In this document: piece by piece, positions 5,964 through 9,422 of the stretch
Position numbering within the stretch: position 1 is the stretch's first letter
Layout of the letters: the number at the start of each line of letters is the position of its first letter
NCBI GenBank assembly: GCA_902773435.1
Contig: CACYEN010000078.1
Location: 1-41,114 of the forward strand
Source of the DNA: an uncultured Lachnospiraceae bacterium
Lineage (GTDB): Bacteria > Bacillota > Clostridia > Lachnospirales > Lachnospiraceae
Direction: 5' to 3'
Length of the DNA stretch: 41,114 nucleotides
Translations under genes and position numbers: made by a program
Notes under the pieces: model-generated
What the model was told of the DNA's origin: nothing
Database searches by the model: none
What the model saw: only the letters and a program-made list of their open reading frames with translations

Positions 5964-6647
5964 CTATTGCAACAGGTCAAAAAAAGACCGGGGGATCTCG
6001 GGCGCTTCAAATAATCGGGGCTCCGTCCGGAACTCCGCCTTCCTCCCCGTATCCGGGTGAATGAACGAGAGGTACACGGCGGCGAGGCACAACCCGCCCC
6101 CGGCGGCGCTCCCGTACTTGCGGTCCCCGCGGACCGGCATTCCCGCGTGCGCGAGCTGCACCCGGATCTGGTGATGCCTGCCCGTGAACAGGCGGATCGC
6201 CACCACGTCGCCGCTGAGTCTCCTGTAGAAGAGCCTCGCTTCCTTCGGCCGCGTCTTCGCTTTCCGCTCTCCCCCGGCAGGGGGCGGCACGATCCGGCTC
6301 ACATTGGTCCCGGGATCCCGGACCAGCCAGTCGGAGAGCGTCCCCTCCTCCGCGGGGATAACGCCGTCGACTTTCGCCAGGTAGACTTTCTTCATCCGGC
6401 CGTCCGTAAGCTGGGCAGAGAGCGCCGCGGCCGCCCTCTTCGTCTTCGCCGCCGCGAGCAGCCCCTCCACGCCCTGGTCCAGGCGGTGAACGATGTGGGA
6501 CTCCCCCGTATAGCGCCGAAGCAGCGAAGCGAGATCCGTCTCCGTCACTCTCCTGCTCTCCACGGCGAGTCCGGCGGGCTTTCTCAGGACAATCACGGAG
6601 CTGTCCTCGTAGATGATCAGGTCCTCCGGACGGCAGTACACATTCAT
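5964..6647 (-). CDS. RluA-family pseudouridine synthase
   Basis: A 227-residue RNA pseudouridine synthase. The catalytic motif HRLDQGVEG places the nucleophilic aspartate at about residue 57; later motifs are GRHHQIRVQLAH and GDRKYG. There is no N-terminal S4 domain, so it resembles short RluA/RluD-like proteins whose substrate (23S rRNA or tRNA) cannot be assigned from sequence. I chose the ATG at 6647 (MNVYCRPEDL) because AAAGGGGAAG lies just upstream; the frame is open to 6716 but that extension is Arg/Lys-rich and lacks a good site. The stop is 69 bases from the V-ATPase operon. A terminator hairpin sits upstream at 6747-6784. Confidence 0.9.
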   Translation of the reverse strand: MNVYCRPEDLIIYEDSSVIVLRKPAGLAVESRRVTETDLASLLRRYTGESHIVHRLDQGVEGLLAAAKTKRAAAALSAQLTDGRMKKVYLAKVDGVIPAEEGTLSDWLVRDPGTNVSRIVPPPAGGERKAKTRPKEARLFYRRLSGDVVAIRLFTGRHHQIRVQLAHAGMPVRGDRKYGSAAGGGLCLAAVYLSFIHPDTGRKAEFRTEPRLFEAPEIPRSFFDLLQ

Positions 6648-6728
6648 GGGCTTCTTCCCCTTTCGCCAGGTCCGGCGGCCTTCCCGCGTCGACGCTGCCC
6701 CGGACGTCAACATCATATCTCAGATCCG

Positions 6729-6784
6729 GGAAAAACGCAAAACAAAGCGGCCGTCGTACTACCTGTTCGCAATACGGCGGCCGC
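6729..6784 (-). terminator. Rho-independent terminator upstream of the pseudouridine synthase gene
   Basis: A 12-bp stem (6747-6758 with 6773-6784, one mismatch) and a 14-base loop, followed on the minus strand by a T-rich tract (TTTGTTTTGCGTTTTT). It lies between the candidate RNA region and the synthase gene, so it either ends the RNA transcript or acts as an attenuator. Confidence 0.7.
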
Positions 6785-6858
6785 TCAGAAATCTTCGTTA
6801 TTCAATTGATATCTTACCTCGTCCTTTTCTAAAATGAGGATTCCTTCTGTCCTCTGTT

Positions 6859-6887
6859 ATGGAAGCTTTACAGGAATCTATTGTCAA
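6859..6887 (-). promoter_or_regulatory. Weak promoter candidate upstream of the terminator
   Basis: TTGACA (minus strand, 6882-6887) is a perfect -35, but the hexamer 17 bases downstream is TTCCAT, a poor -10. If used, it would give a transcript of about 110 bases ending at the 6747-6784 hairpin, or read through into the pseudouridine synthase gene. Confidence 0.3.
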
Positions 6888-7040
6888 GTTTTTATTTCTA
6901 TTCCCGGCTCATCTTTCGATTTAGAAATTTAATATCGATTCTGTGCGAACCGGCATGCGGTCTGCTTCATTCCGCTTCTGCGGTACGGCCGGTATACATC
7001 GGCATCTAACGCGGATCGCTCTCTATCCGTACGCACTGGC

Positions 7041-7480
7041 TATCATAATAAAAAGTTTCACGCCGGCGTTCGGGTCTCCTGACCTTCCGCCCGATTTACT
7101 ATGATAAGGCAGGTACTCAATATGAAAAGCCAGCTGATATACCTTTTCAATCTTCCGGAGTACTCTCAGGTCTCCTCATGTATCTGCAATACGTTATGGG
7201 TGAAAAGGCTTTCTTGTCGGGAACTGCTGGGCTCTGCCTGCTTCATATTGAGGAGCTGCGATGATCGGATCTTCTGTTCTCAACGGACCGCCCTCCTTCT
7301 CTTCCTGGTTCCCAGTCTTCTTAACTGCTCATCTTGCTTCTTTGCATCTGCTTATCAAAACGTCTTTGGTCTGTCCGAATGGTTCGTCCGCAATCCGGAT
7401 TTCTCGTCTCCGGATACTGCAGGTAGCAGAAAGACTGAGATTGTGTTGATGTTCCGAACTATGAGTCCTTCGTTTTGATA
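7041..7480 (-). ncRNA. Candidate large structured RNA of unknown class
   Basis: No credible ORF is present, yet a consensus minus-strand promoter (7486-7514) points into it and it is full of inverted repeats. A perfect 10-bp pair joins 7471-7480 with 7353-7362; its 5' strand begins at the predicted transcription start. Inside it are hairpins 7417-7420/7426-7429 and 7393-7398/7410-7415. AAGACTG at 7431-7437 can pair with 7313-7319 outside that domain, which would be a pseudoknot. Further pairs are 7219-7224/7308-7313 (6 bp), 7142-7149/7201-7208 (8 bp), and 7041-7052/7095-7106 (12 bp with one G-U), the last enclosing TCGGG/CCCGA. The true 3' end is unknown; the first strong terminator downstream is at 6729-6784, giving up to about 750 bases. 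Base composition is visibly more AT-rich than the neighbours. I do not recognise the class. Confidence 0.55.
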
Positions 7481-7485
7481 TAAGA

Positions 7486-7514
7486 ACTATAGCAGATCAG
7501 CCCCTAATTGTCAA
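7486..7514 (-). promoter_or_regulatory. Consensus sigma-A promoter driving the candidate RNA
   Basis: On the minus strand TTGACA (7509-7514), exactly 17 bases, then TATAGT (7486-7491). Immediately upstream are A-tracts resembling an UP element. It is the strongest promoter I can see in the window. The predicted start is near 7479-7480. Confidence 0.75.
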
Positions 7515-7793
7515 TGCATTTTTTGGTTTTTCCCCGATTTATTTTTCATTTGCTCTTTCATTGTCTTAATTATCTGATATTGTTCGTATTTTTCAAATAT
7601 TTTCATCGATTTACATAACTTCGGGAGCCATCCGTCCCGCCGGATCTTCCCGCTCAGAAACGGCGCGGCCGGCACCTGAATCTCCTGCGATCTGTCTGCC
7701 GAATCCGCTTGCCAGTTCCGTCATTTTTATATATACTATATACATATATTATATTCACCGGAATTCATCATATAGTATACACTCACACAAAAT

Positions 7794-7850
7794 CCGGCAG
7801 AGAAGGGGCTTCCGCCCCGTCCTGTGTTACAGACTGCCGGCACAGGAGGT
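7794..7850 (+). promoter_or_regulatory. Structured leader of the caspase gene with alternative folds over the ribosome binding site
   Basis: Fold 1 pairs CCGGCAG (7794-7800) with CTGCCGG (7834-7840), enclosing a GGGGC/GCCCC hairpin (7805-7809/7814-7818). Fold 2 pairs CCTGTG (7821-7826) with CACAGG (7841-7846), covering the first bases of the AGGAGGT ribosome binding site (7844-7850). The two long pairings interlock, so they are either mutually exclusive or a pseudoknot. Several AT-rich hexamers between about 7730 and 7780 could be the promoter; none is clearly best. Confidence 0.5.
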
Positions 7851-7856
7851 CATCCT

Positions 7857-9422
7857 ATGGAAAACCGTTTAAGACATCGCTGTAAACCTGCATCAATTCT
7901 CTTCATTCTTCTTGTCTCTGTCTTCCTGACGGCGGCGGCCGTATCCGCGGCGTCCGGTTTCGACAGATCCAGGACGACAGCTTCCAACGCGGGACCGGCT
8001 GTCGCGCAGTCCGCCTTCAGCGGCTCCGTGACGAAGGCTCTGCCAAAACCGTCGGGCCTTCGGATCACCTGCAAGGGACTCGGCAAGCTCTACATGAGCT
8101 GGAATTCCATCTCGGGAGCTTCGTATTACGCGCTGTTTGAGAAGCCGCCCGGACAGAGCACCTACTACAAGGTCGGCAACATCAGCGGCACCAGCACCTA
8201 TCTCTACAACAATTTCAAGCGGGGCAAGCGCTACTACTACAAGATCCGCGCGTTTGGCTCGGGCGGGAGCAGCGCCTACTCGAACACGATCGCTATCGTG
8301 CCGAAGGAGAAGGCGAAGAAGATCACCCGGACGATCAGCGGAAAGAACGTGAAGCTCTCACTTAGATGGATTCCCACGGCTTACAGCTACCAGATCGCGA
8401 GAAAGGTCGGCTCCGGCAGCTACAAGGGAATCGCGACGGTGAAGAAGAGGACATACACCGACACATCGACGAAACGCGGCAAGACATATTATTACCGCTA
8501 CCGCGCGATCTACAAGTATCACGGGTACACGATGTACGGCGCCTGGTCGCCTTCCGTCAAGGCCAAAATCCCGGGAAGCAGCGGAAGTTCCGGATCCGGG
8601 AAGTCCGTCTGGCGCGCCCTGCTGATCGGCAACGGTTCTTACTCGTACGCGAACGATCTCAACGGCCCCGGCAAGGACGTCACGGCCATGAAGGCCATGC
8701 TGGCGAAGCGCGGATACAGCAAGATCACCGTCAAGAAGAACGTGTCGACGAAACAGGCTTTCAAGAACGCCATCAAATCCGCGTTCTCAGGCGCGAAGAG
8801 CAGTGACGTATCTCTGTTCTTCTACAGCGGACACGGCATGAGCGATACTTCTTCGAGTTCCTACGAAGGCGCCCTGTGCCCCACCAACGGATATTACAGC
8901 AGTGATATGCTCACGATATCCGAGCTCGCCACCGCGCTCAAGAAGATTCCGGGCAAGGTCGTCGTCCTTCTTGACAGCTGCGGAAGCGGCGGAGCCGTGT
9001 ACAGCAAGTCCGCCTCCGGAAAGATCACAGCCACCACGATGGACTTTGATCCGGATGTGTTCAACCAGGCTGTGGCTGACGCGTTCAGCTCGGCTGACGC
9101 GGTTGTCGCCGATGCCGACGAGGCCAGGACCGGGGAACTTCGCAAGAGCAAGTTCTATGTAATCACCGCCTGCGGATATCAGGAGTATTCTTACGACAAC
9201 AACGGCGGTTACTTCACAAAGGCGCTGGTTGAAGGCGGCGGCTTCAGCTTCACAGGACATTACGGTCTCTCCGGGTACATGGCCGGCGATTCCAACAAGA
9301 ACAACAAGCTCTCACTCAACGAAGCGGCCAACTATATCAGAAAGAAGATCAGCAGCTGGGGTATCCCGCAGCACACCCGCGCCTATCCGGCGAAGTCTTC
9401 ACAGGTCATCATGAAGAAGTAA
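7857..9422 (+). CDS. Secreted caspase-family (C14) protein with two FN3 domains
   Basis: A 521-residue protein. In order: signal peptide (about 1-32, hydrophobic core ILFILLVSVFLTAAAV), linker, two fibronectin type III-like domains (about 64-148 and 155-240), a Ser/Gly linker, and a caspase-like peptidase domain from about 250. The catalytic pair is H326 in YSGHG and C375 in LLDSCGSGG, the spacing expected of metacaspase/caspase domains. A 12-residue loop D478-E489, with D478, N480, N482, S486 and E489, looks like an EF-hand calcium site. Start ATG 7857 has AGGAGGT seven bases upstream. Probably exported and self-processing or calcium-activated, but this is inferred from domains; the target is unknown. 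It stands alone, with a strong terminator after it. Confidence 0.88.
   Translation: MENRLRHRCKPASILFILLVSVFLTAAAVSAASGFDRSRTTASNAGPAVAQSAFSGSVTKALPKPSGLRITCKGLGKLYMSWNSISGASYYALFEKPPGQSTYYKVGNISGTSTYLYNNFKRGKRYYYKIRAFGSGGSSAYSNTIAIVPKEKAKKITRTISGKNVKLSLRWIPTAYSYQIARKVGSGSYKGIATVKKRTYTDTSTKRGKTYYYRYRAIYKYHGYTMYGAWSPSVKAKIPGSSGSSGSGKSVWRALLIGNGSYSYANDLNGPGKDVTAMKAMLAKRGYSKITVKKNVSTKQAFKNAIKSAFSGAKSSDVSLFFYSGHGMSDTSSSSYEGALCPTNGYYSSDMLTISELATALKKIPGKVVVLLDSCGSGGAVYSKSASGKITATTMDFDPDVFNQAVADAFSSADAVVADADEARTGELRKSKFYVITACGYQEYSYDNNGGYFTKALVEGGGFSFTGHYGLSGYMAGDSNKNNKLSLNEAANYIRKKISSWGIPQHTRAYPAKSSQVIMKK

What the first reader, a model, noticed from the sequence alone, without database searches (positions are those of the whole stretch)
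6747..7514. Consensus promoter driving a long, non-coding, heavily base-paired transcript
Seen directly: TTGACA-17-TATAGT with upstream A-tracts on the minus strand, no minus-strand ORF of useful length downstream, and a 10-bp perfect inverted repeat (7471-7480/7353-7362) whose first strand starts exactly at the predicted transcription start. Further nested pairs of 6, 8 and 12 bp follow, and one 7-bp pair (7313-7319/7431-7437) crosses the first domain, suggesting a pseudoknot. The stretch is more AT-rich than its neighbours. This is the layout of large ornate bacterial RNAs such as OLE, ROOL, GOLLD or raiA, but I cannot match it to any of them.
Basis: partly seen in the sequence, partly recalled or inferred. 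Interest (0 to 1): 0.78.

Follow-up and report, generated by a model that had tools for sequence, protein, structure and literature searches.

The report
Uncatalogued large RNA in Lachnospiraceae
A stretch of DNA that looked empty encodes a long, intricately folded RNA, found in many gut and rumen bacteria and matching no family in the public RNA catalogue searched here, that carries one or two tiny translated reading frames inside its fold and so may let the cell sense how busy its ribosomes are.

Summary
No Rfam 15 family matches. Covariance models of a 200-nt core find it once per genome in 30 of 42 genus genomes and in 64 of 299 sampled genomes of the family (63 of 298 genera at E<=0.001); all matches in order and class samples were in that family. 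The core is pseudoknotted, with strong covariation. 86 of 87 homologues have an exact TTGACA-N17-TAnnnT promoter. In 85 of 87 a purine-rich site and ATG/TTG/GTG open a 2-35-codon frame that mostly runs into the core. In the window's group a second frame of 5-7 codons ends at the foot of the 3' hairpin. Frames are kept while peptides vary, so I propose that translation gates the fold. The family is well supported; the mechanism is inference. Interest 0.82.

The parts
7486..7514 (-). Promoter TTGACA-17-TATAGT
   Evidence: exact TTGACA-N17-TAnnnT in 86 of 87 homologues, the 87th (L197) cut off by its contig end
6737..7481 (-). Whole RNA, about 745 nt (start and end inferred from promoter and hairpin, not mapped)
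   Evidence: 23 genus members delimited in the same way are 517-1361 nt long
7393..7415 (-). 5' hairpin with the loop GACGAGAA
   Evidence: motif in 15 of 30 genus members, 13 with a stem of 4 or more pairs
7292..7298 (-). Shine-Dalgarno-like site AAGGAGG of ORF1
7194..7283 (-). ORF1, TTG start, 29 codons and stop
   Evidence: start codon in 85 of 87 homologues; frame test; translation not shown by experiment
7243..7252 (-). Core helix P1, 5' strand (inside ORF1)
   Evidence: 8 of 10 pairs with changes on both sides in 87 loci
7116..7125 (-). Core helix P1, 3' strand
7234..7238 (-). Pseudoknot GGCAG, 5' strand (inside ORF1)
   Evidence: 6 of 6 pairs with changes on both sides in 48 loci; not part of any search model
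7108..7112 (-). Pseudoknot CTGCC, 3' strand
7226..7233 (-). Core helix P2, 5' strand (partner 7128-7134)
   Evidence: 7 of 7 pairs with changes on both sides (helices 2 and 3)
7216..7223 (-). Long-range helix, 5' strand TTCCCGAC
   Evidence: partner located in 28 of 30 genus members; pairing as good in 1 of 5000 shuffles
6901..6908 (-). Long-range helix, 3' strand GCCGGGAA
7202..7209 (-). Core helix P3, 5' strand (partner 7142-7148)
   Evidence: 6 of 6 pairs of helix 5 with changes on both sides
6785..6805 (-). ORF2, TTG start, 6 codons and stop, preceded by GAGGTAA (6814-6820)
   Evidence: 40 of 51 loci; 46 of 59 hairpins, 13.4% after shuffling
6747..6784 (-). GC-rich terminator-like hairpin, followed by TTTGTTTTGCG
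   Evidence: the T tract is weak in many homologues
5964..6716 (-). Neighbour: RluA-family pseudouridine synthase gene (not part of the RNA)
   Evidence: TIGR00005, 123.4 bits, below its curated cut-off of 192.7; nearest downstream gene in 22 of 85 loci

Best explanation
A family of large structured RNAs of the Lachnospiraceae, absent from Rfam 15, with its own consensus promoter, that works as a ribosome-gated RNA. SUPPORTED BY COMPARISON: the promoter; a pseudoknotted core; in the window's genus a long-range helix to the 3' part; a conserved start of translation (ORF1) whose frame usually runs into the 5' strands of the core helices; and in the window's group a second mini-ORF (ORF2) that ends at the foot of the 3' hairpin. 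INFERRED: what is kept is the act of translation rather than the product, since the frames stay started and open while the peptides vary and can be two codons long. A ribosome on ORF1 holds P1 and the pseudoknot open; when initiation or elongation is scarce the core closes. A ribosome on ORF2 disturbs the 3' hairpin in the same way and lets some transcription run on into the next gene. The folded RNA is the active form and acts in trans, as RNA or RNP, possibly on ribosomes; its target is unknown. My odds: real RNA family not in Rfam 15, 0.97; ORF1 translated, 0.9; ORF2 translated in the window's group, 0.85; translation-gated folding as the purpose, 0.4.
For: Promoter in 86 of 87 against 10 of 1700 shuffles. 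Covariation: 13 of 17 pairs with two-sided changes on a MAFFT alignment made without structure (21 sequences); 90.7% of cells paired against 76.9% shuffled (48 loci); 87.9% against 71.9% (87 loci); pseudoknot 6 of 6 pairs; long-range helix. ORF1: start codon in 85 of 87 (ATG 41, TTG 39, GTG 5); a stop before the helix end in 4 of 60 loci in frame, 37 and 43 of 60 in the other two frames. Two-codon ORF1 in L122 and L173 (L177 too reads as two codons). ORF2: 40 of 51 loci, stops TAA 15, TAG 13, TGA 12; 46 of 59 hairpins against 13.4% shuffled; start GTG in L122 and ATG in L201.
Against: No transcript, ribosome footprint or phenotype was available. ORF2 is usually not recognisable in a second group of genera. 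ORF1's start is lost in L165, and in 12 of 80 loci it is out of frame with CAATAT. ORF1's site and start lie in the modelled region, so their presence is partly selected. Where ORF1 stops after 2-5 codons a ribosome on it would not reach P1, which weakens direct gating there. The RNA was not found in 12 of 42 genus genomes (4 of 18 good ones) nor in 235 of 299 family genomes. The direction of the switch and action in trans rest on no test.
Confidence: 0.5

Rival explanations
1. Giant attenuator: a cis-acting leader whose two leader ORFs control read-through past the 3' hairpin into the next gene (RluA-type pseudouridine synthase in the window's group, a TPR-like protein in another group).
For: The nearest downstream gene is RluA-like in 22 of 85 loci, 20 on the same strand, and TPR-like in 18, all on the same strand. 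ORF2 abuts the hairpin. The T tract is weak in many homologues. The scan of 6600-7900 shows no minus-strand promoter-like site between hairpin and RluA gene.
Against: RluA was not found in the fetched stretch in 20 of 51 loci; it is convergent in L044 and L046 and upstream in L163, yet the RNA keeps promoter, core and usually ORF2. Co-direction with the downstream gene (59 of 74) is little above that with the upstream gene (55 of 77). A leader of 0.5-1.4 kb would be extraordinary.
Confidence: 0.25
2. A dual-function RNA of the RNAIII kind: an mRNA for a small peptide that also base-pairs with target mRNAs.
For: Own promoter, embedded short ORF, long-range helix, terminator-like 3' hairpin.
Against: The peptide is not conserved over the family and shrinks to two codons. 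No target search was made.
Confidence: 0.12
3. A structural RNP RNA like OLE or a cage RNA like ROOL, in which the reading frames are minor (for example ribosome sites that stabilise the RNA).
For: Size, pseudoknot, covariation and single copy.
Against: Two independent kinds of frame conservation, in the core and at the 3' end, are hard to explain as by-products.
Confidence: 0.12
4. Artefact or decayed sequence: chance promoter and chance folding of an AT-rich spacer.
Against: Homology, covariation, promoters and frames over 87 loci.
Confidence: 0.01

Closest known systems
OLE, ROOL and GOLLD (large ornate bacterial RNAs)
   Same: Large (OLE about 600 nt, many GOLLD over 800 nt: abstract listing, passages), complex, pseudoknotted RNA without known function.
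   Different: No Rfam match. ROOL and GOLLD lie in phages and prophages, often near tRNA islands (passages of PMC12286853); this one is single-copy, chromosomal, with recurring neighbours, one exact pattern of it has no match in the viral contigs, and it carries conserved short ORFs.
raiA motif RNA (ModT)
   Same: Structured RNA of Bacillota with its own gene (abstract listing, PMC11706538).
   Different: The raiA model has 209 positions and does not match; different neighbours. The own-genome search for raiA found nothing, but its control was silent too.
RNAIII of Staphylococcus aureus and other dual-function RNAs (recalled)
   Same: Embedded short ORF with Shine-Dalgarno site, long-range helix, terminator-like 3' end.
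   Different: Here the peptide is not conserved over the family and the frame overlaps the conserved pseudoknotted core.
Leader-peptide attenuators (uORF motifs, as in PMC11109978, passages)
   Same: Conserved start and stop, frame next to a terminator-like hairpin.
   Different: Much longer, and the downstream gene is not constant.
tmRNA
   Same: RNA with an internal short reading frame and pseudoknots (recalled).
   Different: The genome has its own tmRNA on another contig (C49, 159.8 bits); ORF1 has a start codon and a ribosome-binding site.

Membership tests
OLE / ROOL / GOLLD / raiA as held in Rfam 15 | Match to the family's covariance model | tested here: not met
   No match in the window at gathering score, in 6650-7650 up to E 10 (one chance match to another family), in 19 genus loci up to E 1 (no match to these families) or in 20 distant loci up to E 0.1
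ROOL / GOLLD | Carried by phages or prophages, near tRNA islands | tested here: inconclusive
   One 20-base pattern has no match in viral contigs; recurring chromosomal neighbours; tRNAs near the RNA were not searched
ROOL / GOLLD / OLE | Homo-oligomeric assembly | not testable with these tools
   Needs cryo-EM or native gels
Dual-function (RNAIII-like) RNA | Embedded translated ORF | tested here: met
   By comparison only: start in 85 of 87, frame test
Dual-function (RNAIII-like) RNA | Conserved peptide product | tested here: not met
   Peptides vary and shrink to two codons; third codon positions freer in the genus only
Dual-function (RNAIII-like) RNA | Base-pairing with target mRNAs | not tested
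   No target search was made
Leader-peptide attenuator | Constant co-directional downstream gene | tested here: not met
   RluA-like next in 22 of 85 loci and TPR-like in 18; convergent in L044 and L046; RluA not found in the fetched stretch in 20 of 51
Leader-peptide attenuator | Leader ORF next to an intrinsic terminator | tested here: met
   46 of 59 hairpins, though many have weak T tracts
tmRNA | Match to the tmRNA model | tested here: not met
   tmRNA found elsewhere in 9 of 9 genomes searched; no tmRNA match in the window

The most novel reading that the evidence does not exclude
An RNA spread over a bacterial family whose fold is set by ribosomes on mini-ORFs that need no product: a direct gauge of translation capacity that closes its pseudoknotted core, and stops at its 3' hairpin, only when ribosomes are scarce, and then acts in trans, plausibly on ribosomes or their modification, as the frequent RluA neighbour hints.
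Probability: 0.3. Interest if true: 0.93.

Novelty: new variant of a known kind. Interest (0 to 1): 0.82.

Why it matters
Large structured bacterial RNAs conserved over many genera are few and most lack a known role. This one reaches 63 of 298 sampled genera of the Lachnospiraceae at E <= 0.001 (the four weakest, 34-39 bits, are uncertain), matches nothing in Rfam 15, and carries reading frames woven into its fold, which makes its function testable by start-codon mutations and ribosome profiling.

Tried and rejected
Crossing helix: look-alikes in some relatives, 3 of 30 above the 95th percentile of the swapped control, 4 of 30 above that of the shuffled control. A protein on the plus strand (ORF 7101-7478): rejected; its frame is broken by stops in 7 of the 12 relatives that tblastn lists, and the rest are short pieces. 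Known RNA families. 6S RNA and tmRNA: found elsewhere in the genome. raiA elsewhere in the genome: nothing, but the control was silent, so this shows little. Cis leader of RluA: kept as a rival. A first scan for the long-range helix took chance matches outside the genus; crashed; one search repeated the test on the genus only, with the 3' strand chosen by motif and composition, not by pairing. The first ORF2 test had too strict a T-tract rule (34 of 87 loci with a terminator, 15 with a mini-ORF, 6.6% shuffled); I then relaxed the rule and widened the allowed stop position (59 of 87, 46, 13.4%), so those settings were chosen after seeing the first result. In one search two distances (L195, L200) were misassigned by the script; read from the printed peptides both are in frame, which gives 68 instead of 66 of 80. 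The seven genomes that only R3 found (G159, G175, G217, G230, G239, G311, G351) were not looked at. No tree was built, so 'group' and 'subgroup' are by likeness. Literature: searches (listings and starts of abstracts seen) and passages of PMC11109978 and PMC12286853 showed no description of this RNA; most subscription journals are not held, so it may be in print elsewhere.

Full report
WHAT WAS CLAIMED AND WHAT IS THERE. Promoter, repeats and AT-richness are in the sequence as described. One search lists no minus-strand ORF of 60 aa or more inside the stretch, and the minimum-energy fold beats 20 of 20 shuffles (z -3.15). Rfam 15 gives nothing for the whole window at gathering scores and one chance match, to a human RNA family on the other strand, in 6650-7650 at E up to 10. 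Start and end are inferred, not mapped.

IT IS A FAMILY. A DNA search of 61 genomes gave colinear blocks in many same-genus genomes, whereas among the 24 genomes of other families of the order the best E-value was 0.013. The window and 22 relatives could be delimited from promoter to hairpin; they are 517-1361 nt long, seven of the ends being set by eye. A covariance model of the 200-nt core (R1) found one copy in each of 30 of 42 genus genomes, and the widened R2 found 30 of 42, or 14 of the 18 that are at least 90% complete and at most 5% contaminated. Two of the twelve misses (G024, G031) carry the 3' part at the edge of a contig. In an even sample of 299 genomes of the family R1 found 21, R2 57 and R3 64, or 63 of 298 genera. 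Only eight candidates per genome were scored, so true carriers may be missed; on the other side the four weakest matches (34-39 bits) are uncertain and E-values are rough. In samples of the order (392 genomes, R1; 4 positive) and of the class (291 genomes, R2; 2 positive) every positive was in the same family. One exact 20-base pattern had no match in the viral contigs; in the genome contigs it gave 33 stretches, of which R1 confirmed 10 of the 17 that I tested. One genome, G147, has two copies.

STRUCTURE. On the MAFFT alignment of 21 genus cores, made without structure, RNAalifold predicts 17 pairs, 13 with a change on both sides in at least one sequence. On the model-fitted alignment of 48 loci 90.7% of cells pair, against 76.9% after shuffling and at most 41.6% when slid, and 21 of 24 pairs have two-sided changes. 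With 87 loci the figures are 87.9%, 71.9%, 44.5% and 22 of 24. These two alignments lean to the structure they were fitted to. One pair (helix 4) fails in more than half of the sequences. The pseudoknot, in no model, is GGCAG/CTGCC in the window and GTGGTAT/ATACCAC in many others: 6 of 6 pairs have two-sided changes, and 80.4% of cells pair against 73.4% shuffled and at most 59.4% slid; its two outer pairs fail in about half of the sequences. In the genus a helix of up to 8 bp links the core (7216-7223) to the 3' part (6901-6908). It was located in 28 of 30 members, with 10 distinct pairings; 91% of cells pair against 82% shuffled, and 1 of 5000 shuffles does as well.

PROMOTER. 86 of 87 homologues have TTGACA, exactly 17 bases, TAnnnT within 700 bases upstream of the core; the 87th (L197) is cut off by its contig end; 10 of 1700 shuffled stretches have it. 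The promoter was in no search model. That it is strong and constitutive is inference from its likeness to the consensus.

ORF1. In 85 of 87 homologues a purine-rich site, mostly GGAGG, is followed by a start codon: ATG 41, TTG 39, GTG 5. The pattern also allowed CTG, which did not occur. The other two are L165 (start lost) and L197 (truncated). Stops are TAA 50, TAG 22, TGA 13; the length is 2-35 codons, median 24. Site and start lie in the modelled region, so their presence is partly selected; the frame is not. The distance from the start to CAATAT varies, mostly 24, 27 or 36, and is a multiple of three in 68 of the 80 loci where it could be read (66 by script, two corrected from the printed peptides). 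The 12 out-of-frame loci are seven genus members of one subgroup, in which another frame is open, four loci whose ORF1 has stopped before, and L192. Over the 60 loci with distances 36, 27 and 24 a stop before the helix end occurs in 4 in frame, and in 37 and 43 in the other frames. Third codon positions are freer in the genus but not elsewhere, and frames of two codons exist (M-G-stop in L122 and L173). Selection thus seems to act on translation rather than on a product.

ORF2. In 40 of 51 loci a TTG codon opens 5-7 codons that end next to the 3' hairpin (stops TAA 15, TAG 13, TGA 12); in nine none was picked up, and L034 and L049 lack the start. One search looked for the start motif first. 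With hairpins chosen without regard to ORF2, 46 of 59 have a start codon and an in-frame stop at the hairpin foot; shuffling the 40 bases before the hairpin gives 13.4% (a stricter first version gave 15 of 34 against 6.6%). In 28 of 87 loci no hairpin met the rule. In the genus the count is 24 of 30; at four of the six misses (L095, L113, L115, L116) the script took a hairpin farther downstream. The start is GTG in L122 and ATG in L201. In a second group of genera ORF2 is mostly not recognisable. There CCTCCGA occurs after the core (25 of 57 non-genus loci, 0.5% in shuffles), in 24 of them with TCGGAG; it could pair with TCGGAG or with the GGAGG of ORF1, which would be a switch (the pairing is inference and was not tested).

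SURROUNDINGS. In the window the RNA lies between a divergent gene with a weak match to caspases (66.2 bits, cut-off 140) and an RluA-family pseudouridine synthase gene (123.4 bits, cut-off 192.7), followed by genes that I recognise from memory as V-type ATPase genes. Over 85 loci the nearest downstream ORF is RluA-like in 22, 20 of them on the same strand, and in 18, all on the same strand, a protein that I call TPR-like because of weak matches to two TPR-containing families; RluA is the upstream neighbour in one. In 20 of 51 loci RluA was not found in the fetched stretch. The nearest downstream ORF is co-directional in 59 of 74 and the upstream one in 55 of 77. RNA end points were estimated as 600 bases after the core where ORF2 was not found.

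HOW IT PROBABLY WORKS. Where ORF1 runs through, its codons are the same bases as the 5' strands of P1 and of the pseudoknot, so ribosome and fold exclude one another. ORF2 places a ribosome against the 3' hairpin in the same way. I therefore propose a ribosome-gated RNA with the folded form active. The direction of the switch, action in trans and the target are inference. Loci with an ORF1 of two to five codons fit this less well, since a ribosome there would stop short of P1. The main rival is a giant attenuator for the next gene.

RELATION TO WHAT IS KNOWN. In size and style it stands with the large ornate RNAs; by the Rfam models it is none of them. It is not the genome's tmRNA or 6S RNA. 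I found no description in the held literature. I call it a new variant of a known kind: a large structured RNA with embedded reading frames whose products seem not to matter.

Noticed in passing
L022 1970-2130 (genome G018, contig C304): A Clostridiales-1 RNA (RF01699, 41.2 bits, below the gathering score of 48) lies just upstream of the new RNA's promoter on the opposite strand.
   Followed up: partly
window 7824-9422 (+): A putative secreted protein with a weak caspase match (NF047832, 66.2 bits, cut-off 140) is divergent from the RNA promoter.
   Followed up: no
L169, L170, L174, L175, L181, L184, L185, L189, L190, L191, L194-L196, L199 and others, downstream of the RNA: A TPR-like protein of unknown function is the nearest downstream gene in 18 loci, always on the same strand; NCBIfam gives only weak TPR-family matches for one of them.
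   Followed up: partly
genome G147: C12:353107-353285 and C7:23816-24009: The only genome in the family sample with two copies of the core.
   Followed up: no
L115, about 590 bases after the core start: A long inverted repeat (28 pairs, loop short) resembling a miniature transposable element lies next to the RNA; the likeness is by eye.
   Followed up: no
L036 and L037, just downstream of the RNA: ORFs that look by eye like IS200/IS605-type transposases (cluster 9) sit next to the RNA.
   Followed up: no
after the core in 49 of 87 homologues: A conserved motif TGTAAAGAAA (12 of 30 genus, 37 of 57 other loci; 0.5% of shuffles) has no assigned role.
   Followed up: partly
L024 452-831 (genome G027): A T-box leader match (59.7 bits, below the gathering score of 93) lies near the RNA locus.
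   Followed up: no
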